The translations under genes were made by a program, and so were the position numbers. From positions 186,001 to 250,000 of the forward strand of contig NZ_JACJPO010000038.1 in assembly GCF_014696105.1 (NCBI RefSeq): a DNA stretch of 64,000 nucleotides, read 5' to 3'. Under the pieces are notes generated by a model. The model was not told where the DNA came from and did no database searches. It saw nothing but the letters and a program-made list of their open reading frames with translations. Below, one piece after another: positions 616-14,391 of the stretch (position 1 is the stretch's first letter; each line of letters starts with the position of its first letter). Source of the stretch: Microcoleus sp. FACHB-1515. GTDB taxonomy: Bacteria; Cyanobacteriota; Cyanobacteriia; Elainellales; Elainellaceae.

Positions 616-3135
616 CTAGTTCATTGCCATCAGGCGTTCATGCTCGTATGCAGGGCGTTTTTGTCCGCGTTCTTCCACCTGCATCAAACTGGGATCAGGC
701 GACTCGATGTTGACAAAATGCGCGAAGCGTTGAAGGGCTTGCGGATTTTCGATCGTTGTCTTCCATTCGCAAGCATAAGTATTCACCTGGTGCTGCATTT
801 CGGCTTCAAGTTCAGCGCAGATGCCGATCGAATCTTGCACAACAACCTGCTTCAAATAGTCCACTCCGCCTTCCAATTTGTTCAGCCAAGTTGCAGTCCG
901 TTCAAGCCGATTGGCGGTGCGGATATAGAACATCAAGAAGCGATCGATCAAACGAATCAAAGTTTCCTTATCCAAATCTTCTGCTAACAGTTGCGCGTGC
1001 TGCGGTTTCATGCCGCCGTTGCCGCAAACATACAGATTCCAGCCTTTTTCCGTTGCAATAACGCCGAAATCTTTGCTTTGGGCTTCGGCACATTCGCGGG
1101 TGCAGCCCGACACAGCAGACTTGATTTTGTGAGGAGCGCGGAGGCCGCGATAGCGCAGTTCCAGTTCGATCGCCAAACTGGTCGAATCCTGTACGCCAAA
1201 CCGACACCAAGTGCTGCCAACGCAGGATTTCACCGTCCGCAGTGCTTTCCCGTAGGCGTGACCCGACTCAAATCCAGCATCCACCAGTCGCCGCCAAATG
1301 TGCGGAAGCTGATCGACTCTTGCGCCCAGTAAATCAACCCGCTGACCTCCGGTAATTTTCGTGTAGAGGCCAAATTCTTTCGCCACTTCGCCCAAAGCAA
1401 TTAGCTGATCGGGCGTCAGTTCACCACCGGGAACGCGAGGAATAACCGAGTACGTGCCGTCGCGCTGAATGTTGGCGAGAAATGCGTCGTTCGTATCTTG
1501 CAGTCCGACATGTGGCGCGTTGAGAACGTAGTCGTTCCAAGCGGACGCAAGAATCGAAGCAACAGTGGGCTTACAGATTTCGCAGCCGCGTCCGGTTCCA
1601 TGTGACTGTAGCAGTTCGTCAAAGGTGCGGATTTGGTTCGATCGCACAATGTGATAAAGCTCCTGCCGCGAGTAGGCGAAATGCTCGCACAGGTGATTCT
1701 TCACTTCGATCCCCGCCTTTTTCATCTCTGCCTTCAGCAGATCGGTGACGAGCGGAACGCAGCCACCGCAGCCAGTTCCCGCTTTGGTGCAGGCTTTGAC
1801 GCTGCCGACATCCGTAAAGCCGTTCGCCTGAATTGCCGTACAGATGTCGCCCTTCGTCACGTTGTTGCACGAGCAGATTTGAGCGGCATCGGGAAAACTC
1901 TCAACGCCCATCGCAACAGGCGCTCCCGTCCGAGGTGGTAACAGCAAATCTTCGGGATGCGGTGGGAGGGCGATCGCATTTTGCACGAGTTGCAGCAGAT
2001 TTCCGTAGGCCGAAGCGTCGCCGATCAAAATGCCGCCGAGCAAGCGATCGCCCGCCTCGTTCATCACCAGCTTTTTGTAGGTTCCCTGCCGCGCATCGGT
2101 AATCGCAAACTCAGTTGCGCCCGCTGTTTTAGCAAATGCATCACCAAAGCTGGCAACATCGACACCCAGCAGCTTCAGCTTGGTGGACATATCCGCTCCG
2201 GTGAAGCTGGCCGCGCGTCCGCAAATGTGATCGGCGGCGACGCTTGCCATCGTGTAGCCCGGAGCAACCAGGCCGTAAATGCGATTTTGGTAGAGGGCAC
2301 ATTCCCCGATCGCATACACATTTTCATCCGAAGTTTGGCAGGCTTCATTAATCACAATACCGCCGCGTTCACCGATCGCCAAACCGCAATTTCTGGCGAG
2401 TTCATCACGGGGACGAATGCCAGCCGAAAACACGATCATCTCAGTTGCTAGTTCGCTCCCGTCCGCGAATTTCATCTTGCTAACGCGACCCGCTTCGCTA
2501 ACAATTTCAGTCGTCGATTTGCTCGTATGAACCTGAACACCCAGCGCTTCAATTTTCTGCTTGAGTATTGAACCGCCGACATCATCAATTTGCACAGGCA
2601 TCAAGCGCGGTGCAAACTCAACAACGTGAGTTTCTAAACCCAAGTTTTTCAAGGCATTGGCACATTCTAGACCTAATAATCCGCCACCAATCACAACACC
2701 AACGCGACAGTCTTTCGCGTAGGCAGACATTGCTTCTAAATCATCGATCGTGCGATAGACAAACGTTCCTTGCGCTTCTTTACCTTGAATCGGCGGCACA
2801 AACGGATAGGAACCTGTTGCTAGAACAAGCTTATCGTAATGAACCACTTTGCCATTTTGCGATCGCACCGTTTGCGATTCGCGATCGATTTCCACAGCTT
2901 TGTCATTCAGATAAACCTGCACATCTTGATAGGAATCGGGCACAACCAGCGATAAATCTTCTGCCGTTTTTCCTGAGAAGAAGCCGCTGAGATTGACGCG
3001 ATCGTAGGCTAGTCGCGATTCTTCGCAAAAGGTAATCAAGTTCCATTCTTGGGTCGCGCCCTGAGCGATCATGCGCTCGATGAAGCGGTGGCCGACCATG
3101 CCATTCCCAATCACAACCAGATTTTTTCGGGACAT
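616..3135 (-). CDS. nirB: Nitrite reductase [NAD(P)H] large subunit NirB
   Basis: An 839-residue flavo-sirohaem protein catalysing six-electron reduction of nitrite to ammonium. An N-terminal FAD/NAD half carries GNGMVG at residues 10-15 and GGGLLGLE near 150. A BFD-like [2Fe-2S] region follows, with C421 and C423 (ICSCNNV) and further cysteines near 447-460 (CTKAGTGCGGC). The C-terminal half holds the ferredoxin-like nitrite/sulfite reductase domains with the [4Fe-4S]-sirohaem ligand motifs C-x5-C (C638, C644) and C-x3-C (C678, C682). All key cysteines are present and the length is normal. Most cyanobacteria use the shorter ferredoxin-dependent NirA instead, so this type is noteworthy here. 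The ATG at 3135 is the natural start, about 75 nt from a perfect NtcA box. Confidence 0.95.
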   Translation of the reverse strand: MSRKNLVVIGNGMVGHRFIERMIAQGATQEWNLITFCEESRLAYDRVNLSGFFSGKTAEDLSLVVPDSYQDVQVYLNDKAVEIDRESQTVRSQNGKVVHYDKLVLATGSYPFVPPIQGKEAQGTFVYRTIDDLEAMSAYAKDCRVGVVIGGGLLGLECANALKNLGLETHVVEFAPRLMPVQIDDVGGSILKQKIEALGVQVHTSKSTTEIVSEAGRVSKMKFADGSELATEMIVFSAGIRPRDELARNCGLAIGERGGIVINEACQTSDENVYAIGECALYQNRIYGLVAPGYTMASVAADHICGRAASFTGADMSTKLKLLGVDVASFGDAFAKTAGATEFAITDARQGTYKKLVMNEAGDRLLGGILIGDASAYGNLLQLVQNAIALPPHPEDLLLPPRTGAPVAMGVESFPDAAQICSCNNVTKGDICTAIQANGFTDVGSVKACTKAGTGCGGCVPLVTDLLKAEMKKAGIEVKNHLCEHFAYSRQELYHIVRSNQIRTFDELLQSHGTGRGCEICKPTVASILASAWNDYVLNAPHVGLQDTNDAFLANIQRDGTYSVIPRVPGGELTPDQLIALGEVAKEFGLYTKITGGQRVDLLGARVDQLPHIWRRLVDAGFESGHAYGKALRTVKSCVGSTWCRFGVQDSTSLAIELELRYRGLRAPHKIKSAVSGCTRECAEAQSKDFGVIATEKGWNLYVCGNGGMKPQHAQLLAEDLDKETLIRLIDRFLMFYIRTANRLERTATWLNKLEGGVDYLKQVVVQDSIGICAELEAEMQHQVNTYACEWKTTIENPQALQRFAHFVNIESPDPSLMQVEERGQKRPAYEHERLMAMN

Positions 3136-3181
3136 CGTGAACTCTCGTGTAGTGCCATTCGCTTGCTAAGCCTATCGAGAG

Positions 3182-3221
3182 TTTCTAAAAGTTGCGAGCG
3201 GCATTTTGTAGCTTTCGATAC
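3182..3221 (-). promoter_or_regulatory. NtcA-type promoter of nirB
   Basis: A perfect NtcA box, GTA-N8-TAC, occupies 3208-3221. NtcA is the global nitrogen activator of cyanobacteria. Its class II promoters have this box roughly 22 nt before a -10 element. On the minus strand a TAGAAA hexamer (3187-3182) starts 20 nt after the box, which fits roughly although it is not a good -10 match. The box sits 73 nt upstream of the nirB ATG, in the 272-nt gap behind the ADP-ribosylglycohydrolase gene. Activation under ammonium shortage is inferred. Confidence 0.7.
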
Positions 3222-3407
3222 GGAATCGGGTCGATCGATTCACGTTCTGCATCAGGTCAATTCTGTTCTTGCATCAGTCGAAGTTTTAATGCCACAAAGC
3301 TCAATTTGTAACAGCTTTGAAATAATTAAGTTGCCGAAAAGCGGCTGCAAAGCATAGGAAAACTATTAAAGGATTAGGCGGTAATTCAAAATTGTGTTTT
3401 TTCTGCT

Positions 3408-4367
3408 TTACCCACACACTGCCGCGAATCGAGTAGCGAGATCGATGATGTCATCGCGGCGAGCGATCGCCTCTATCCAATCTTTTGGAATCGCCTCAAA
3501 GCCATAATAAATTCCGGCCAAGCCGCCCGTTACCGCAGCCGTTGTATCTGTATCGTCTCCTAAATTCACCGCTGTTAAAACCGTTTCTGCGTAGGTCTTG
3601 CCATTCAGCAAACACCACAAAGCAGCTTCGATCGTATCAATCACGTAGCCTGACGATCCGATCGAATCGATCGATTGCTGGTGAATTTCGTCCTGAAAAA
3701 GGCGATCGAAATGCTTCAATTCTGGTTGAAAAAACGGCAATTTATACAGCGGTGAAATCCGATTGCATCCTTTTTGATAGGCCGTGTGTGGATCGTCACC
3801 TTGCAGCAAAGCGATCGCAATCGACACGTAAATCCCGCAGGCCATTTGCGATCGTGGATGCGCGTGTGTGATGCAGGAAACTTGATGGACGCGATCGATC
3901 AAATCAGGAAAATTCAGCTTTGAATGCAGAAACGCCATCGGTAAAATTCGCATCAGTGAGCCGTTGCCGTTGCTTCGTTCACTTGTTCCACCTGCTTCCA
4001 ATGGCGGCACACCTTGAAGCATTCGATTGATGGCTTGTGCAGTTGTGTCACCCACATCAAATGTTTCATTTCTCGCCGTCCAGTAGCTTTGTTGATACCA
4101 ACGACAAAAGCGATCGCCAATATCTGCGAGATTAAATCCTTGACACAAGCTTTCCGCAAGGCAAAAAGTTAGCGAACTGTCATCCGACCAAGTGCCTGGT
4201 GGCTGATTCCAAGTTCCATAGCCTTGCATTGTGGTGACAGGCTGAATTTGACGTTGCGATCGACTCGTAAACTCGACCGGAACGCCAAGTGCATCTCCCA
4301 CACACAGCCCCATCAATCCTGCAAGTATCGACATAATTTCAGCTTCGATCGCGCTGCCAAGCATCAT
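3408..4367 (-). CDS. ADP-ribosylglycohydrolase (DraG/ARH) family protein
   Basis: A 319-residue member of the family that removes ADP-ribose from proteins or small substrates with two metal ions. The family metal-site motifs are present in order: GDALGVPVEF near the start, SDDSSLTF, NGSLMRILPM, ITHAHPRS and the C-terminal NLGDDTDTTAAVTGGLAG. The catalytic core therefore looks intact. ATG codons at 4367 and 4364 and another at 4334 (MSILAGLMG) are all possible. The last fits the family N-terminus best, and none has a good ribosome site. The gene follows the dnaE-C stop by 35 nt on the same strand and could be the last gene of that operon. The true substrate cannot be told from sequence. Confidence 0.85.
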   Translation of the reverse strand: MMLGSAIEAEIMSILAGLMGLCVGDALGVPVEFTSRSQRQIQPVTTMQGYGTWNQPPGTWSDDSSLTFCLAESLCQGFNLADIGDRFCRWYQQSYWTARNETFDVGDTTAQAINRMLQGVPPLEAGGTSERSNGNGSLMRILPMAFLHSKLNFPDLIDRVHQVSCITHAHPRSQMACGIYVSIAIALLQGDDPHTAYQKGCNRISPLYKLPFFQPELKHFDRLFQDEIHQQSIDSIGSSGYVIDTIEAALWCLLNGKTYAETVLTAVNLGDDTDTTAAVTGGLAGIYYGFEAIPKDWIEAIARRDDIIDLATRFAAVCG

Positions 4368-4402
4368 AGCAGGCGGCGATCGAATTTTCGGTCAAACTGA
4401 CA

Positions 4403-5731
4403 CTAACTGCCTGTCAGTGCCGTAGCTCTTGCCTGAAATCCTGCCTGAAGCAAAGCATTCACGGCAGACTGTTGTTCTAACACACGAAATTGAGCACCTA
4501 GCCGCACAAATTGCCGATGTTCCTTTGCAGAGATGACCGCAACAACCGGAACTTTTGCCTTGTCACCTTCGCCACGCTGATTGAGTAAAACAGTACGAAG
4601 CTGATGCTGTTTAGTAATATCGCTGGCTGTTCGCGGCTCCAATTCAACTAACACCATCTGCACCGTTTCAATTGGTTCTGCATCTTCAATAATCAACTGC
4701 ACTCGATCGTCACGAGTATCAACTTTTCCCCAAATCATCAGCCGCGCATCAATCTCAATTACTGAATTGATTCGATCGAATGCCTTGGGAAAAATAACCG
4801 CCTCGCAATGTCCGGTGAGATCTTCAATTTGCACGATCGCCATCCGTTCGCCTTTTTTAGTCGTTACAGGCTTGATGCTTGACACCATAACGATCGCACT
4901 CAACATTGAGCTATCCGCTTGATGACTTAGCTCACTCAGGCTAATTGGCGCAAGAATTTTTGCAGCTTCATGAATCGTCCGCAAGGGATGATCAGAAATG
5001 TAAAAGCCTAACAGTTCTTTTTCTAGCTTCAGCTTTTCCTGCGGCGGAAAATCAGGAACAGATGCAGCTTTTGGTGCGGCTTCAAAACTGGTAGATGATT
5101 CATTAGAACTGCCAAATAGATCGAATAGATTGCCTTGTCCAATTGCTCGATCTTTTGCTCGCGACTGTGCCCAGTCCAACACAAGATCTAGATCATGCAT
5201 GAGTTGATTGCGATTTGGATCAAGACAGTCAAACGCGCCCGACTGAATCAATGCTTCCAGAGCGCGGCGGTTGACGGTGCGTGAATCAATTCGACTGCAC
5301 AAATCACTCAATGATTGAAACAAGCCTTCTTCGCGAGCAGATAGAAGATGTTCGATCGCCCCTAAGCCAACATTCTTAACAGCAGACAAACCGAATAAAA
5401 TGCTGTCTTGCAAAGGCGTAAAATCAATGCCCGATCGATTGATATCCGGCAGCTCTACCTGAATGCCCATGTTCATGCAGGTGGCAATGTATTTTTGCAC
5501 CTTGTCTTGGTCGCCGCTGTTTGCGGTCAGCAACGCCGCCATGTATTCAACCGGATAGTTGGCTTTTAGGAACGCCGTTTGATAGGTGACGTAGCCGTAA
5601 GCGGTTGAGTGCGATTTGTTGAAGCAGTTGGAGGCGATCGCACCATTCTCCAGCAGGAAATTGTGATCTTCGATCACGCCAATATCAAAAACAGGTTGAA
5701 CGCCTAAAGATTCACGGCTGACAATTTTCAT
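4403..5731 (-). CDS. dnaE: DNA polymerase III alpha subunit, C-terminal half with C-terminal split intein (DnaE-C)
   Basis: A 442-residue precursor. Residues 1-35 are the split intein half IntC, with block F ([12 protein letters not shown]) and block G ending in ASN. The C-extein then begins [21 protein letters not shown], a helix-hairpin-helix and OB-fold region typical of the end of bacterial DnaE. I chose the ATG at 5731 because GAGGAG lies eight bases upstream and IntC sequences begin M-I/K-I there. An in-frame TTG at 5761 would overlap the preceding gene. The C-extein is 407 residues. With the 756-residue N-extein encoded nearby, the spliced product would be 1163 residues, close to the 1160 of E. 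coli DnaE. The gap to the Uma2 gene upstream is only 16 nt. Confidence 0.95.
5627..5731 (-). other. Split intein C-terminal half (IntC) of DnaE
   Basis: Thirty-five codons from MKIVSRES to the terminal Asn. Block F ([11 protein letters not shown]) contains the conserved Asp and His, and block G (NGAIASN) has the cyclising Asn. The next residue is the +1 Cys, followed by Phe-Asn, as in the Npu and Ssp DnaE inteins. The Cys codon lies at 5626-5624. All residues needed for trans-splicing are visible. Confidence 0.93.
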
Positions 5732-5747
5732 CGATCGCTCCTCACAG

Positions 5748-6332
5748 CTAGATATTGGCAAAAATCGGCTTTAAATCTAATACGAATTCAAATAAAACAT
5801 CTTCGCCAGATAGTGATTCTGGGTTTTGAAGAATTTGTGGAGGTTGGTTCGCTCGATAAACTTCAACCTGTCGATTTTTTGGGTCAATTAGCCAACCTAA
5901 TCGCACACCGCTATCGATGTACTCCTGCATCTTTTTTCTAAGTTGCATCATTGAATCAGTTTCTGAGCGCAATTCAACCACAAAATCCGGCGCAAGCGGT
6001 GGAAATTTGCGTCGCTGCTCTGGCGTTAAAGCATTCCACTTTTCCCGCTGTACCCAGCTTGCATCCGGTGAATAATTCGCCCCGTTTGGCAGTTTAAATT
6101 CAGTTGAGGAATCAAAGGTAAGTCCGAGATTCGTCCGCTGATTCCAGCTTTCTAGCTGAAAGGCGATTTTCATGTTTCGGTTTCCAGTTTCTCCGCCTGT
6201 TGGTGGCATGATGATCAGCTTTCCCTGTGCTGTTCGCTCAATTTTGAGATCGCGATTTACTTGACAAAGATCGAAGTACTGATCGTCGGTCAGCTTCACA
6301 ATGGGTTGGAGGTCAATTTCGATCGCAGACAT
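5748..6332 (-). CDS. Uma2-family (DUF820) PD-(D/E)XK nuclease-like protein lying between the dnaE halves
   Basis: A 194-residue protein of the Uma2 family, which is strongly expanded in cyanobacteria and has a restriction-endonuclease-like fold. The fold markers are [10 protein letters not shown], the acidic SPDASWV, and [13 protein letters not shown], which supplies the second catalytic acid. These are followed by the usual [16 protein letters not shown] helix-strand and the EVYR strand. The ATG at 6332 has GAGGAA eight bases upstream. It follows the 440-residue gene by 20 nt and ends 16 nt before the IntC start codon, so it is part of the dnaE operon by spacing. Its biological target is unknown. 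A paralog about 50% alike by eye is at 13801-14391. Confidence 0.88.
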
Positions 6333-6352
6333 ACTCGATTCCTCAACTCAAT

Positions 6353-7675
6353 TTATGCAAATTCTAGAGGCTGGGAAGGCAGAATATACATTAAATTTGC
6401 TCCTTCCGGTTGGGGTTCTGCGGGTTCAAGCTTGAGCCATTCATGAAAGCTGATCCCAAGCTGCGCGATCGCCTGCACTTCAACCTGATACGCTTCAAAT
6501 CGCTGCTGCGTTTCGATCATTGATTCCATCATTTCCATTGCTTGCGGAAGCCGTTTCATTGTTTCCTGTTTGGTTTCTTCTCGATTACCAAACATGCTGC
6601 CTTTCACTTCGTTTTGGGTAATAATTGCTGCTGGCAAAGACTCAACCCACTTGTAGCCTCTCCTAGCATTTTGCTCATCCATCAAGTTAAACAAATTGTC
6701 GCGCTGTAGCTCAAAAACAGCGTTTTCATTCATTGCTGGATCGAGCCACTGATAAACCTTTGTGAGCCGCTTGAGATCGATTTTTTCCTTGAAATCAGGA
6801 TGCAGATAAGCCGCAGGATTTGAAGTCAGAAGCATTTGAACGTACTTTTGCAGGCAAGCTCGAATTTTTTCTGCGCCAGTCTGTAGGCGTTGAGGCACAA
6901 TGTCAAATTCTTCCAATTCGAGATAGCAACGCGCCTCAGCGATGTAAGCTAGCGCTAAGGTGAGCAAATATTCGTCAATGATTGGGCTTTTTTGTTCTAG
7001 TTCCTGCTGCACCAAGCCCAAGTAGATATGCTCAGCTTTGAGGAAACGGTTGATTGCTGAGAGAGCGCTGCTTCTGCGGTTTTCGGGCTTGCTCATGGTG
7101 AAGGCATTCATTGCCAAATCCAGCGCGGCTCGAAACTCTGCATAGAAGCTCAAGTCGATTTTCCGATCGATCTTGCTCAACAGTTCTTGAGACTTCTGCA
7201 AACGTTCCTCAAGCTCGCCCAACCGCTGCAAAATGACAGTGAATCCAACAACTGAAACACCCAAATTCAAAATGCTGGCCGCAGATGTCACCTGCAAAAC
7301 GCCCTGCATATTCTGCATCGTGTTTTCGATCGCGCTCAACTGTTGCTCAATGCCATCAAGCCGCCCGTTCACTTTTGAAAAACCGTGAACAGAAACACCA
7401 GTATTGACTGCTGAAACTGCGAAATTAGCGACACCTACAGCAGGGTTCACGGGGAGCGATTGCAGTGCTTTTGCTAGGTCAATGAGCCACCCGCCGTTAG
7501 AACCTGTTGCACAACCATTCTTGCCCACTTCCCTGAGCCAAACCACAACTTGTTTAGTTACAGCATCACGCACCACGCCGCCAACACGCTCATAGCTGCC
7601 ATTCATCAAACCCTCAGCGATCGCTTGAGGCAAAACAAAGGTTGTCGTCAGTGTATTCACGATCGTTGACCCCAT
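6353..7675 (-). CDS. Hypothetical protein with hydrophobic helices and coiled coils, between dnaE-N and dnaE-C
   Basis: I do not recognise this 440-residue protein by name. The N-terminal 55 residues (MGSTIVNTLTTTFVLPQAIA, ERVGGVVRD, VVVWLREVG) form an amphipathic module. Two similar units follow at about 75-185. Each is a small-residue hydrophobic stretch (VANFAVSAVNTGVSVHGF; ILNLGVSVVGFTVILQRL) running into a heptad-like helix (LDGIEQQLSAIENTM; LGELEERLQKSQELLSKID), which suggests a hairpin that could enter a membrane. The rest is a long all-helical region, and the C-terminus is short and acidic. The ATG at 7675 is 9 nt after the dnaE-N stop and the next gene follows by 20 nt, so it should be co-transcribed with dnaE. 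A helical pore-forming or scaffold role is only a guess. Confidence 0.75.
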   Translation of the reverse strand: MGSTIVNTLTTTFVLPQAIAEGLMNGSYERVGGVVRDAVTKQVVVWLREVGKNGCATGSNGGWLIDLAKALQSLPVNPAVGVANFAVSAVNTGVSVHGFSKVNGRLDGIEQQLSAIENTMQNMQGVLQVTSAASILNLGVSVVGFTVILQRLGELEERLQKSQELLSKIDRKIDLSFYAEFRAALDLAMNAFTMSKPENRRSSALSAINRFLKAEHIYLGLVQQELEQKSPIIDEYLLTLALAYIAEARCYLELEEFDIVPQRLQTGAEKIRACLQKYVQMLLTSNPAAYLHPDFKEKIDLKRLTKVYQWLDPAMNENAVFELQRDNLFNLMDEQNARRGYKWVESLPAAIITQNEVKGSMFGNREETKQETMKRLPQAMEMMESMIETQQRFEAYQVEVQAIAQLGISFHEWLKLEPAEPQPEGANLMYILPSQPLEFA

Positions 7676-7684
7676 CAGCAGAAA

Positions 7685-10321
7685 TTACCTTTGCAGTGTG
7701 CCCAGCGTGCTTCCGGTTGTAACGGGCGGCCAGCAAAGCTGATCCCTTAGGGATCGTACCTCCACACGCTTCAGTTCTAATCCTTGACGATAGATTCGAT
7801 CGATCGCTACCATTTCGCCTTTTGTTGTCATGAATTCGTGGTCTTTCGTGGCGCGAATTTTGGTGTTGTCTTCGAGGCAATATTCAAACACCTCTTGCAG
7901 GCCGCGATCGTGCCACTGAGCAATTTTTTGAGCGTAGATGCAGCCGTTTTGATTGATGCTGTAGACAGTGCAGGGAAAGCGATCTTTAACAATTTTGCCG
8001 ATTGGAAGTGAGCCATGTTCGATCGTTAAAATTTCAGTATCGTAGCTCAAGCAATATTCGGCAAACTTCACCATTTGGTCAAAAAGCTCGGCAGCAACTT
8101 TGGGTTTTACGCCGTTCTTTGATGCCCCACCAACAAAGATTTCCTGATGCTTTTCCATCTCGGATTTCTTTTTTTTGCCCATTGCTCGACGGAGCAGATC
8201 GGCTTGTCCCAACGAATAGCCACCCATGTCCTGCGCGATCTTCATGATTTGCTCTTGGTAGACCATGATTCCGTAGGTTTCGTTGAGAATCGTTTCTAGG
8301 ATTGGGTGATCGTATTCAATCTTTTCGCGTCCGTGTTTGCGATTGATGAATCGTGGAATGAGGCCAGCGTCAAGTGGACCAGGACGATAGAGTGCAAGAA
8401 CCGAGGAAATGTCCTCAAGCCCATCCGGTTTGAGTTCGCGAACGATTTGTCGCATTCCTGATGATTCAAGCTGAAAGATGCCTTCTAGCTCGCCTCTTGC
8501 AAGTAGCTGATAGGCTTTGGGATCGTTAAGCGGTAAGTTGTCAAGGTCGATCGATTCTTTACGATGCTGGACGATCAGATCGATCGCCTTCTGGATCATT
8601 GTCAGATTTTTTAATCCTAAAAAGTCCATTTTCAGCAGTCCCAGCGCTTCAATGTCCTCCATGAAATATTGTGTGAAAACGTTGCCGTCGGCGTTGCGCT
8701 GAAGCGGCACAATTTCATCGAGTGGCTGAGCAGAAATAACGACACCTGCGGCATGAATGCCAACACTTTTGTTTGTGCCTTCGATGCGAATTGCCATGTC
8801 GAGCCAGTGGCGAACTTTCTCATCTTTTTCGTATTTTTCTTTAAATTCCGGCGCAGGTGTTTCGTCAGAAATCATCACTTTAAGCTTGGTCGGTTTGCCG
8901 CGCACAACCGGAATCAGTTTTGCCATGCGATCGGCTTCTCCATAAGGAATATCTAGCACTCGCGCCACATCTTTTAACACCGCTTTGGATGTCATGCGGT
9001 TATAGGTAATGATTTGGGCGACGCGCTCGGCTCCATATTTTTCGGTGACATATTGAATGACTTCATCGCGGCGATCGATACAAAAATCGGTGTCAATGTC
9101 CGGCATCGATTTTCGTTCAGGATTCAAGAATCGCTCGAACAGTAAGCCATGATGAACCGGATCAATGTTCGTAATTCCCAATGCGTAAGCAACCAGCGAT
9201 CCAGCAGCAGAACCGCGACCGGGGCCAACGGGAATATTGTTGTCGCGAGCATATTTGATGTAGTCCCACACGACTAAAAAGTAAGTGGAAAAGCCCATCT
9301 GCTGCATCATTTGCAGTTCGTAGTTGAGGCGATCGCAATAAGTCGAATCGATCTGGTCACGCCTCGTTACTTTGCGTCGTTCGAGCAGTCCCTCCCAGGT
9401 CACTTTCTCCAGATAGCTTTCAGCGGTGTAGCCTGCGGGAACGGGATAATCGGGAATGCGCGGTTCGCCTAAAATTTCGTAGGGTTCAACTTTTGCGGCA
9501 ACTTCGAGCGTGTTGGCGATCGCTTCTTCAATGACATCTTCCGTCAGATGATCGCGAAACAGCAAGCGCATTTCTTCAGGAGATTTTAGATATTCTGTGC
9601 CGCTATATCGCAAGCGTTTATCTTCAGAAATGAGCTTTCCGGTTTGAATGCAAAGTAGTGCGTCGTGCGCTTCCACGTCATAGCAAGAAATGTAGTGAGA
9701 ATCGTTGGTTGCAATTAGCTTGACGCCATATTCGCGAGCCAAATTGACCAGTTGAACGTTAACAATTCGGTCTTCTTGCGAGCCATGATCTTGAATTTCG
9801 AGATAGAAATTGTCCTCGAATCGGTCTTGATACCATATGACGCGATCGCGAGCAATATCCATCCGGCCTTGCATGATCGCTTGGGGAATTTCTCCGCCCA
9901 GACAAGCGCTCGTGACGATCAAGCCTTCGCGGTATTCTTCTAATAAATCTTTGTTGATGCAGGGACGTGAGAAAATGCCTTTTCCCTGAACGCCTTGCAG
10001 GTGCGAAATGGTAGTGAGCTTGACGAGGTTTTTGTAGCCTTGCGTATTTTTAGCGAGAACGACTTGGTGATAGCGCGGACGGCGTTCTTGCTTGGTGATG
10101 TCGCCGTTGATGACGTACATTTCATTGCCGACGATCGGCTTGACGTTGCGAGCCATGCACACCTTGAGCAGTTCGATCGCGCCGTACATGACGCCGTGAT
10201 CGGTGAGGGCGATCGCAGGCATTTCGAGTTCAACGGCGCGATCGACCAGATCGGGAAGTTGACTCGCGCCATCGAGTAAGCTGTAGTCGCTGTGAATATG
10301 CAAGCCGACGAAGGAAGACAT
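7685..10321 (-). CDS. dnaE: DNA polymerase III alpha subunit, N-terminal half with N-terminal split intein (DnaE-N)
   Basis: An 878-residue precursor carrying the PHP domain ([11 protein letters not shown] at the start), the palm and finger domains, and a C-terminal IntN. The catalytic acids lie in [15 protein letters not shown] at about D408 and D410, and [17 protein letters not shown] matches the polymerase core. The N-extein ends KFAEY after 756 residues, and the intein begins at Cys757. A GTG precedes the ATG by one codon, and I used the ATG at 10321. Neither has a strong ribosome site. The DnaE-C half is on the same strand 1.95 kb downstream, separated by two genes. In cyanobacteria studied so far the halves are usually far apart. 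Confidence 0.96.
7688..8053 (-). other. Split intein N-terminal half (IntN) of DnaE
   Basis: A 122-residue segment starting with the nucleophilic Cys (codon 8053-8051) after extein Tyr. Block A is [10 protein letters not shown] and block B is [11 protein letters not shown] with the T-x-x-H motif. AQWHDRG and [14 protein letters not shown] match DnaE inteins closely. The recognisable intein ends near ELKRVEV. The last 23 residues, including [16 protein letters not shown], resemble no intein tail I know. The total length is close to the 123 residues of Ssp IntN. Confidence 0.92.
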
Positions 10322-10691
10322 CACACCAAGCCCGGAATTCAGAATTTAGCTAAGCGTAACACTATACCTGGAGTTTTTCGCCTGATTTTGCGGATCTTGC
10401 CTCTACATCTGGAACTAGAGTTTTGAGACAGGCAAGCCCTGCACAGGCGACAATATTGCTCCTGCGAATGCACCGTGTTCTTAATATTTGTTTAATTTCT
10501 TGATACTAATGTACCAGAAAAACGCTGGAAAAACTCTAAACTTTTAGCAAATTCTCAACAAAGTTTTTGCGCCGCCATCCGCCGCTGTTTTTCCTGTTGC
10601 AGCGATCGAACTGGCACAGGCGGAACCGCGATTTTCGGAAACCGTCGAGCCGTTCAGTGAAATTACTGCCGTTGAATTTACAGAAAGCTTT
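10322..10691. promoter_or_regulatory. Divergent intergenic region upstream of dnaE-N
   Basis: A 370-nt gap between dnaE-N (minus) and the exported-protein gene (plus); it should hold both promoters. I see an AT-rich block near 10480-10515 and a loose CTTGCCT/AGGCAAG inverted repeat near 10394-10427. The plus-strand frame of the next gene stays open upstream to a TAG near 10545 but has no usable start there. I see no clear conserved promoter element. Confidence 0.35.
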
Positions 10692-11453
10692 ATGAAAGCA
10701 AAACATGACTTGAAGCGATCGCTCCGCCGACTGATCCTGCTGGCCTTGATGCCTGTCGCGACTGCTACCAGCATTTTCATCGCGCCATACTCGGCGTTGG
10801 CAAACTGCGCGGGCGAACCGCCAGATGAAGTCGTTGTGCCGCTGGTGCAGCAGCGCTGGCAGGAATTGCAGCGGATGCAGACTTATCCTTGGGGAACAGC
10901 GCGAGTGTATGACCGCTTGGATGTCGATCGCCGTCAGGTTTGGTTCAATGCCAACTTCAACCAGCTTCGCGGAACGCAAAAGCAGCAGGCGATCGAAATG
11001 CTTCAGCTTGGCAGTTCTCCCTTCCGAGCTTACGCCAGCGATGGCCGCTTGCTCTCTGCCCGATATGACGGCTGTACGCGCTTCGACACGCTCACCGAAC
11101 GAGCACGCTACGGCTACTACTTCAACGAAATTGGGCGATCGCTCCCCTCCAACACGCCCCGCGATCAGTTGCGAAATGTTGGGCGTCCGGCTTGGCGGCA
11201 GGTGCGCTATCCAATCACAGCCGCGACCGAGCGATCGGTGCGGACACTGTTCTGGAATCGGATGGGCTACGCACAGGCAAACAGCGGCATGTGGATCGCT
11301 TGGGTTCCCGAACAGGGCTACTTTGAAATCAATGTGCCCAATGGCTACAACGTGCAGCAGCTAAGCCGTTTCTGGGGCGCGGCTCCGCGTCAATATCGCT
11401 ACATCGTCGTGCAAACGGATGGAACAACAGTGTTTGACGCGAATTTTGATTAA
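10692..11453 (+). CDS. Exported hypothetical protein
   Basis: A 253-residue protein with a clear signal peptide: basic MKAKHDLKRSLRR, a hydrophobic core LILLALMPVATA, and a likely cleavage after YSALA before NCAGEPP. The mature part is rich in Arg, Tyr and Trp and has no domain I recognise. It contains LFWNRMGYAQANSGMWIAWV and a C-terminal YIVVQTDGTTVFD. It is transcribed away from dnaE-N. Its stop shares the four bases TTAA with the convergent nuclease gene. A periplasmic or secreted location is inferred from the signal alone. Confidence 0.75.
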   Translation: MKAKHDLKRSLRRLILLALMPVATATSIFIAPYSALANCAGEPPDEVVVPLVQQRWQELQRMQTYPWGTARVYDRLDVDRRQVWFNANFNQLRGTQKQQAIEMLQLGSSPFRAYASDGRLLSARYDGCTRFDTLTERARYGYYFNEIGRSLPSNTPRDQLRNVGRPAWRQVRYPITAATERSVRTLFWNRMGYAQANSGMWIAWVPEQGYFEINVPNGYNVQQLSRFWGAAPRQYRYIVVQTDGTTVFDANFD

Positions 11454-11944
11454 GACGATCGATGCTGTCGTCGCCAGTCCCAAGGCATGACGGGATTGCG
11501 CTGCGCCCAAAAGCCGCGTCGGGCACGGCGGGCGGTTTGTTCAGCTTGCAGGTAAGCGGCTCGATCGTCACGGCAACCGCTGAGATATTGCGAATAGACA
11601 ACGGCCTGCCCTTCCGTCACCAGTTGCAGATTGACCGATCGCCCATTGACATAAATTTCGCCGACTGTGCGCCCATAGCGATCGGTCTCGACCGTCCGCA
11701 GTTGCACACGGCGTCCGGCAGGAAGCAGTTGACGGAGGCGATCGCTGGCCGCTTGTCCTCCGGGTTGGCGGCGTTCGGGCGCGTCAATGCAGGCAAGTCG
11801 AACGGTGACATCTTGGCCGTTTTGCCGCACGTGCAGCGTGTCACCGTCGCCCGTTGAGATGACGCTGGTTCCTAGAAATGCTTGGGCGATCGAGCATCCG
11901 GCTAGGAAAACACACAGCAGCCCTATCAAAATCAATCGTTTCAT
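11450..11944 (-). CDS. Thermonuclease (staphylococcal nuclease-like) lipoprotein
   Basis: A 164-residue SNase-fold protein. The start MKRLILIGLLCVFLAGCS is a lipoprotein signal with the lipobox LAGC, so it is probably anchored to the inner or outer membrane facing the periplasm. The domain shows the calcium and phosphate-binding landmarks: TGDGDTLHV, RLACIDAPERRQPGG, and DRYGRTVGEIYVNG. QLVTEGQAVVY and RARRGFWAQ are typical of its C-terminal half. I chose the ATG at 11944 rather than the in-frame start 18 nt upstream because the signal peptide begins there. The likely role is Ca-dependent degradation of external DNA or RNA. Confidence 0.88.
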   Translation of the reverse strand: MKRLILIGLLCVFLAGCSIAQAFLGTSVISTGDGDTLHVRQNGQDVTVRLACIDAPERRQPGGQAASDRLRQLLPAGRRVQLRTVETDRYGRTVGEIYVNGRSVNLQLVTEGQAVVYSQYLSGCRDDRAAYLQAEQTARRARRGFWAQRNPVMPWDWRRQHRSS

Positions 11945-13800: not shown

Positions 13801-14391
13801 ATGAGTGTGCTAAGTGTCCCGCTGGTGCTGAATCTCGATGGCGTTCATCTCACGGATGAGCAGTTTTATCAGCTTTGTGTGAGTAATCCTGAAATTCCCT
13901 TTGAGCGCAATTCGCAAGGAGCCTTGATTGTCATGTCGCCTGTGGGTGGAGGCAGCGGGAATCGGGAACTGGAGTTTGGAATTGATTTAGGCAATTGGAA
14001 TCGACAGACGCAGCTTGGGAAGGTGTTTAGTTCTTCGACGCTGTTCAAGCTGCCGGGTGGAGGCGATCGATCTCCGGATGCGGCGTGGGTGGAGCTTTCA
14101 CGCTGGCAGGCACTCACGCCGACTCAGCGGCAGAAATTTCCGCCGATCGCGCCAGATTTTGTTATGGAGCTACGATCGCGCACCGATAGTTTGGAGATGC
14201 TGCAACAGAAGATGCAGGAGTATCTTGATAGCGGTGTGCGACTGGGCTGGCTGTTTAATCCGCAAGATCAGCAGGTCGAGATTTATCGGCAGGGTGAAGC
14301 AAAGGAAGTGCGGCCACTGCCGACTGAGCTTTCAGGTGAGTTGGTCTTACCCGGATTTCGCTTAGTGATCGATCGCTTTGACGACGACTAG
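13801..14391 (+). CDS. Uma2-family (DUF820) nuclease-like protein, second copy
   Basis: A 196-residue paralog of the Uma2 gene found inside the dnaE operon. It shares the same landmarks: [75 protein letters not shown] and VEIYR. The acidic SPDA and ELRS positions expected of the PD-(D/E)XK site are present. It stands alone between two copies of a terminator-like repeat. The function of the family in cyanobacteria is not settled. Confidence 0.88.
   Translation: MSVLSVPLVLNLDGVHLTDEQFYQLCVSNPEIPFERNSQGALIVMSPVGGGSGNRELEFGIDLGNWNRQTQLGKVFSSSTLFKLPGGGDRSPDAAWVELSRWQALTPTQRQKFPPIAPDFVMELRSRTDSLEMLQQKMQEYLDSGVRLGWLFNPQDQQVEIYRQGEAKEVRPLPTELSGELVLPGFRLVIDRFDDD

What the first reader, a model, noticed from the sequence alone, without database searches (positions are those of the whole stretch)
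6353..7675. Unknown 440-residue hydrophobic/coiled-coil protein embedded in the dnaE operon
The protein has two similar units, each a hydrophobic Ala/Gly/Val stretch running into a heptad helix, followed by a long helical bundle. Similar architecture is seen in helical pore-forming proteins and some conflict-system effectors. Its neighbours are a nuclease and, past dnaE-C, an ADP-ribosylglycohydrolase. The three non-polymerase genes could be a small toxin/defence-like module riding inside an essential replication operon.
Basis: inference. Interest (0 to 1): 0.6.

Follow-up and report, generated by a model that had tools for sequence, protein, structure and literature searches.

The report
JukB-like gene inside split dnaE intein
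The 440-residue cyanobacterial protein is a distant, stand-alone relative of JukB, a bacterial pore-forming anti-phage protein, and its gene sits in the gap between the two halves of the split replicative DNA polymerase gene, a gap that in related cyanobacteria is filled again and again by nucleases, toxin genes and a homing endonuclease.

Summary
The ORF at 6353-7675 (-) is a real gene under purifying selection. It has the two similar hydrophobic/coiled-coil units described.

(1) The protein belongs to the JukB superfamily. JukB is the tetrameric-pore effector of the Jumbo phage Killer (Juk) system. Support: a PADLOC JukB match at E 6.7e-9 (13 of 14 homologs match, best 4e-20; reversed sequences do not); distant homologs find JukB as the only PDB hit, through the N-terminal module as well as the coil; and JukB ranks first of all PDB chains in two structure comparisons. 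It is not a Juk operon, because no JukA gene lies next to it.

(2) dnaE is cut here by the classical cyanobacterial split intein. dnaE-N ends in the N-intein and dnaE-C begins with the C-intein, only 1,953 bp apart. The JukB-like gene and a Uma2 gene fill that gap. In related genomes the same gap holds LAGLIDADG homing endonucleases, PD-(D/E)XK or Uma2 proteins, a Dam-type methylase, MazF, an AlbA_2 protein, or nothing. In this order the JukB-like gene occurs in 3 of 36 genomes, always in this gap.

Best reading: a lone JukB-like membrane-active, probably defensive protein kept as cargo in a 'fractured' dnaE. The three-gene-module idea fails, and function is untested.

The parts
7685..10324 (-). 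dnaE-N: DNA polymerase III alpha, N-terminal part, ending in the split-intein N half
   Evidence: NF007079 1674 bits, TIGR01445 intein_Nterm residues 758-833
7688..8053 (-). N-intein ([12 protein letters not shown]...) with its variable tail, following extein ...FAEY
   Evidence: TIGR01445 3.2e-11
6353..7675 (-). JukB-like protein, 440 aa (the finding)
   Evidence: PADLOC JukB PDLC04114 E 6.7e-9; VIA rank 1 = JukB 9jht Z 12.5; Ka/Ks 0.09-0.21 against L001
7526..7642 (-). conserved N-terminal module, residues 12-50 (AF2: helix plus three short strands), I..GL..G...R.GGV[IV]R...QVV.WLRE
   Evidence: near-invariant across homologs at 20-60% identity; aligned to JukB 31-70 by the A3 profile
7304..7444 (-). 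hydrophobic/coil unit 1, residues 78-124
   Evidence: internal repeat, 0 of 2000 shuffles as high
7148..7285 (-). hydrophobic/coil unit 2, residues 131-176, with the main TM-like segment 131-149
   Evidence: PADLOC JukB match spans 102-180
6458..7243 (-). C-terminal helical bundle, residues 145-406
   Evidence: AF2 pLDDT mostly 74-94; superposes on JukB 74-303
5748..6332 (-). Uma2-family (PD-(D/E)XK-fold) protein in the same gap; the motif reads PD...ELR, without the canonical lysine
   Evidence: PF05685 1.6e-47; one of 49 Uma2 copies over the cut-off in this genome; Ka/Ks 0.14
4403..5731 (-). dnaE-C: C-terminal part of DNA polymerase III alpha, starting with the split-intein C half
   Evidence: NF005616 720.7 bits; [10 protein letters not shown]...ASN^CFNKSHS
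5627..5731 (-). C-intein, 35 residues
   Evidence: TIGR01443 2.6e-4, over its curated cut-off
5732..7684 (-). split-intein gap, 1,953 bp, holding the JukB-like gene and Uma2
   Evidence: same order in L001

Best explanation
The gene encodes a stand-alone JukB-like protein: a conserved N-terminal alpha/beta module, one or more hydrophobic segments leading into a coiled coil, and a C-terminal helical bundle. By analogy with JukB it most likely stays soluble or membrane-associated at rest. When a trigger is sensed, probably phage infection and probably through the N-terminal module or an unlinked partner, it oligomerises and inserts the hydrophobic unit(s) into a membrane, permeabilising either a phage-made compartment or the host membrane. 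It sits between the two halves of dnaE because the split intein joins the DnaE halves in trans. DNA between the halves is therefore harmless to the polymerase, is probably co-transcribed with it, and is tied to an essential gene. The gap thus works as a safe harbour that collects selfish or defensive genes, with a free-standing homing endonuclease as the likely original occupant. Shown here: JukB homology, purifying selection, the gap location and the recurrent gap cargo. Inferred: pore formation, defence role, trigger, trans-splicing, co-transcription, and the endonuclease as original occupant.
For: JukB homology: PADLOC JukB matches the protein at 6.7e-9 and 13 of 14 family members (best 4.2e-20). 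A distant member matches over the N-terminal module plus hydrophobic segment (residues 9-123, 1.2e-12). Reversed sequences, which keep composition and much of the coil character, do not match JukB. The profile of distant members finds one chain in all PDB, JukB 9jht, with two colinear pieces including ...GQIVrHL against AGSIVKHL outside the coil (E 0.021). The near and distant subfamilies are one family (hhalign 99.4%, E 1.5e-21). JukB is Foldseek rank 1 (prob 0.99) and VIA rank 1 (Z 12.5, 186 residues, rmsd 3.5) for the window protein. [quoted passage not shown]). Location: N- and C-intein models on the flanking genes; same order in L001; a homolog in the gap of G394; 3 of 36 genomes of the order have the gene, all in the gap. 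Gap cargo elsewhere: LAGLIDADG endonucleases in G286 and G420, other Uma2, D12 methylase, PemK/MazF, AlbA_2, PD-(D/E)XK-like.
Against: No JukA gene is adjacent in any genome tested; the nearest weak JukA-profile match is about 6 kb away in G085. Foldseek E-values are weak (0.058), and helical bundles give Z up to about 13 by chance. The distant member's model ranked JukB only 16th (Z 9.6), among Cry-type and designed bundles. The hydrophobic region has pLDDT below 50. Homologs elsewhere are lone genes with no consistent defence neighbour. No pore, toxicity, expression or trans-splicing data exist. Uma2 is abundant (49 copies), so its presence alone proves little.
Confidence: 0.6

Rival explanations
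1. Shared ancestry with JukB but a housekeeping role: a membrane-anchored scaffold or stress protein of cyanobacteria, not defence.
For: Homologs are mostly single genes in varied contexts, e.g. beside a chlN-like gene in several genomes of family f6. Divergence from Nostoc-type homologs (55-60%) is similar to that of DnaE (about 60%), as for an old vertically kept gene.
Against: Patchy: 36 of 386 genomes of the phylum, most at lower identity, and 3 of 36 in the order. Unit number varies 1-3, even within one genus. TA-type genes are frequent neighbours. Family-level match to a known effector.
Confidence: 0.25
2. The gap genes are parts of a homing element: Uma2 (PD-(D/E)XK fold) replaces the LAGLIDADG endonuclease and cuts intein-free dnaE alleles, moving N-intein, cargo and C-intein together; the JukB-like gene hitch-hikes.
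For: LAGLIDADG genes (55% identical to each other) overlap dnaE-N and abut or overlap dnaE-C in two families. Intein-free and split dnaE interleave on the DnaE tree, at least 7 forced changes; the close relatives G011 (split) and G415 (free) differ. A PD-(D/E)XK homing endonuclease is known (Zhao 2007, cited in PMC10448857).
Against: Intein divergence follows extein divergence (G000-G394: N-intein 64%, C-intein 71%, extein 73%), so no recent transfer of this cassette is visible. Uma2 lacks the canonical ExK lysine and is present in 49 copies.
Confidence: 0.25
3. Three-gene toxin/defence module (JukB-like, Uma2, ADP-ribosylglycohydrolase).
For: Adjacency in this window and, for the first two genes, in L001.
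Against: Uma2 and the JukB-like gene occur without each other. The ADP-ribosylglycohydrolase lies beyond dnaE-C and is not seen next to dnaE-C in the other loci read to that point.
Confidence: 0.03
4. The JukB match is a coiled-coil/hydrophobic artefact and the protein is an unrelated helical protein.
For: Weak PDB-level E-values. Other coil families such as LmuB also match weakly.
Against: Reversed sequences lose JukB but keep LmuB. The N-terminal module, outside the coil, matches JukB too. JukB is rank 1 among 350,542 chains.
Confidence: 0.12

Closest known systems
JukB (Jumbo phage Killer system, PDB 9jht; PADLOC PDLC04114)
   Same: N-terminal module, hydrophobic segment running into a coil, C-terminal helical bundle; significant profile match; best structural match of the window protein
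   Different: No adjacent jukA; 440 aa against 335 aa for the 9jht chain; hydrophobic unit duplicated here; cyanobacterial; sits in a split-intein gap; activity untested
Cyanobacterial split DnaE intein (Ssp/Npu DnaE type)
   Same: N-intein ending dnaE-N and C-intein starting dnaE-C at the FAEY^...^CFNKSHS site
   Different: Halves are 1,953 bp apart, same strand, N before C; [quoted passage not shown]
'Fractured genes' with split inteins and a free-standing homing endonuclease (Dassa et al. 2009; known from memory and from citations, paper not held)
   Same: Host gene broken by a split intein with separate ORFs, including an endonuclease, between the halves
   Different: Here the gene is chromosomal cyanobacterial dnaE; cargo varies (LAGLIDADG, Uma2, PD-(D/E)XK-like, MTase, TA, JukB-like)
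I-Ssp6803I-type PD-(D/E)XK homing endonuclease (Zhao 2007, via PMC10448857)
   Same: Restriction-type fold used for homing in a cyanobacterium
   Different: No evidence that the Uma2 here cuts dnaE; Uma2 is a separate family

Membership tests
JukB | Sequence match to JukB profile | tested here: met
   6.7e-9 for the window protein; 13 of 14 members; reversed controls negative
JukB | JukB fold: N-terminal module + hydrophobic segment + helical bundle | tested here: inconclusive
   Rank 1 in Foldseek and VIA (Z 12.5) for the window protein over the bundle, but within the range helical bundles can reach by chance; rank 16 for a distant member; N-terminal module aligned by sequence only
Juk system | jukA encoded next to jukB | tested here: not met
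   JukA profile over 38 genomes holding the gene: never adjacent; nearest weak match about 6 kb away in G085
JukB | Forms membrane pores / stops jumbo phage | not testable with these tools
   -
Split DnaE intein | N- and C-intein on separate ORFs flanked by DnaE exteins at the FAEY/CFNK site | tested here: met
Split DnaE intein | Halves ligate by trans-splicing | not testable with these tools
Fractured gene (split intein + free-standing ORF in the gap) | Independent ORFs between the two intein halves | tested here: met
   JukB-like gene and Uma2 in the 1,953-bp gap; repeated in L001, L053, L062, L063, L065 and others
Fractured gene with homing endonuclease | A homing endonuclease in the gap | tested here: inconclusive
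   Window: Uma2 only, endonuclease activity unproven. In L054 and L077 a LAGLIDADG gene is present
Uma2 nuclease | PF05685 match | tested here: met
   1.6e-47; catalytic lysine of ExK not canonical (ELR), read from the sequence

The most novel reading that the evidence does not exclude
The gap of the split DnaE intein is a general safe-harbour or homing cassette in cyanobacteria. It began as an intein with a free-standing homing endonuclease and now serves as a cargo bay in which nucleases, toxins and phage-defence effectors (including a new lone JukB class) are locked to the essential replicative polymerase. The split intein would then be kept partly because its gap is useful to cargo genes.
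Probability: 0.3. Interest if true: 0.8.

Novelty: new variant of a known kind. Interest (0 to 1): 0.6.

Why it matters
JukB is known as the effector of a two-gene anti-jumbo-phage system. A widespread cyanobacterial family of JukB relatives without JukA would mean this pore-type effector is older, or wired differently, than thought. The dnaE gap matters more generally. The DnaE split intein is the workhorse of protein trans-splicing technology, and its origin is usually told as one ancient genome rearrangement. Close, same-strand halves with a LAGLIDADG endonuclease between them, interleaved with intein-free alleles, look like intermediate states and make the origin and mobility of that intein directly testable.

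Tried and rejected
Pfam, NCBIfam and PHROGs gave only sub-threshold coiled-coil matches for the protein. A direct PDB sequence search with the mixed family profile A2 gave only coils, and phmmer of one distant member gave nothing; only the profile of distant members found JukB. A phage origin was considered: no PHROG support. Recent horizontal transfer of the cassette between G000 and G394 was considered and rejected, because intein and extein divergence agree. JukA partner: one weak match per genome far from the gene, so not a Juk operon. The single-gene genome-contig scan gave only two relatives; the wider survey came from the genome search. Literature for gap genes in cyanobacterial dnaE: nothing found in the held library. 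The two key papers (Caspi 2003, Dassa 2009) are not held, so prior notice cannot be excluded. The number of gap-cargo events is small and no formal enrichment test was made.

Full report
Observation. Its two similar units are real (local score 58 against 21.2 +/- 4.1 in shuffles, 0 of 2000), and a helical bundle follows. The gene is under purifying selection against the same-genus contig L001 (Leptolyngbyaceae cyanobacterium SM1_3_5): Ka/Ks 0.09 and 0.21 in its two halves, Uma2 0.14, dnaE halves 0.03-0.06. L001 is a low-coverage contig with apparent frameshifts also in dnaE. L001 and G394 keep the gene in the same place, directly after dnaE-N.

Where it sits. The upstream gene ends in an N-intein (TIGR01445) and the downstream dnaE gene starts with a C-intein (TIGR01443). 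This is the classical cyanobacterial split DnaE intein, at the usual FAEY^...^CFNKSHS site, but with the halves only 1,953 bp apart, on one strand and in the natural order. The window gene and a Uma2 gene occupy the gap. In 80 other split-dnaE genomes most halves are far apart, but several families have close halves.

What else is found in that gap. Family of the window: JukB-like + Uma2 (G000, G404/L001); Uma2 alone, about 71% identical to the window's (G390, G392); JukB-like + D12 DNA methylase (G394); a Uma2 of another subfamily (G011); almost nothing, 132 and 337 bp (G402, G414). Other families: a LAGLIDADG endonuclease that overlaps dnaE-N and abuts or overlaps dnaE-C (G286, G420; 55% identical to each other); a 226-228-aa PD-(D/E)XK-like protein (G215, G436, G440, G442; 62-93% identical to each other; PADLOC PD_DExK 4.9e-8 for the G440 copy); a PemK/MazF toxin (G443); an AlbA_2/RecG-C protein (G446); small or other genes (G471, G027, G207). 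Uma2 has 49 copies over the cut-off in the window's genome, so a Uma2 in one gap is weak evidence; the spread of different nuclease and conflict families is the stronger point. On a tree of the DnaE C-extein, intein-free and intein-split alleles interleave with at least 7 forced changes, and close relatives such as G011 and G415 differ in state. Intein and extein divergence agree, so recent homing of this cassette is not seen.

What the protein is. PADLOC's JukB model matches the window protein at 6.7e-9 and 13 of 14 family members. A distant member matches over the N-terminal module plus hydrophobic segment, 1.2e-12. Reversed sequences lose JukB while keeping the coil family LmuB. A profile of six distant members finds one chain in all of PDB, JukB (9jht), with two colinear pieces, one of them outside the coil; its E-value of 0.021 is modest. 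The near and distant subfamilies are one family. The AF2 model (mean pLDDT 66.6, hydrophobic part uncertain) has JukB as best structural match in Foldseek (prob 0.99, E 0.058) and VIA-align (Z 12.5, 186 residues). A model of a distant member is less specific, JukB 16th with Z 9.6. Sequence carries the claim and structure supports it.

What it is not. JukA is never next to it, so it is not a Juk operon. In other cyanobacterial families the gene stands alone among varied neighbours, several of TA type, others housekeeping. In the window's order it occurs in 3 of 36 genomes, always in the dnaE gap. The number of hydrophobic units varies from one to three, two here and one in the same-genus L001.

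Mechanism. By analogy with JukB, recruited by JukA to form tetrameric pores on the jumbo-phage early-infection vesicle (PMC13282480), I propose a membrane-permeabilising effector with an N-terminal sensing or oligomerisation module. That step is inferred. For the location I propose that trans-splicing makes the gap the one place inside dnaE where foreign genes do no harm and gain linkage to an essential gene, so cargo accumulates after a homing endonuclease opened the site. The occupancy pattern is shown; the causal story is inferred.

Noticed in passing
L054:3073-3831 and L077:1647-2429: Free-standing LAGLIDADG endonuclease genes between the halves of the split dnaE intein, overlapping the 3' end of dnaE-N; possible still-mobile form of the DnaE split intein.
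   Followed up: partly
L066 (G402), 3018-6721: A second dnaE interruption upstream, with LAGLIDADG-like sequence and intein end motifs (...VVTHNC), in addition to the split intein; the reading frame appears broken.
   Followed up: no
L080:2341-2703: A duplicated fragment of the N-intein downstream of dnaE-N, next to PIN- and RelE-like genes and a PDDEXK_4 gene.
   Followed up: no
L042 (G068), 6768-9481: Two JukB-like genes in tandem.
   Followed up: no
L002 (Gloeomargaritales VI4D9), 9899-11898: JukB-like homolog cut short, with transposase-like ORFs on both sides.
   Followed up: no
window 13801-14391: A second Uma2 gene in the window; 49 copies over the cut-off in the genome.
   Followed up: partly
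G000:C39:71780-72370 (L071): Weak JukA-profile match (8.3e-5); a similar weak match occurs in nearly every genome tested that holds the JukB-like gene, usually in an open frame of about 290 aa.
   Followed up: no
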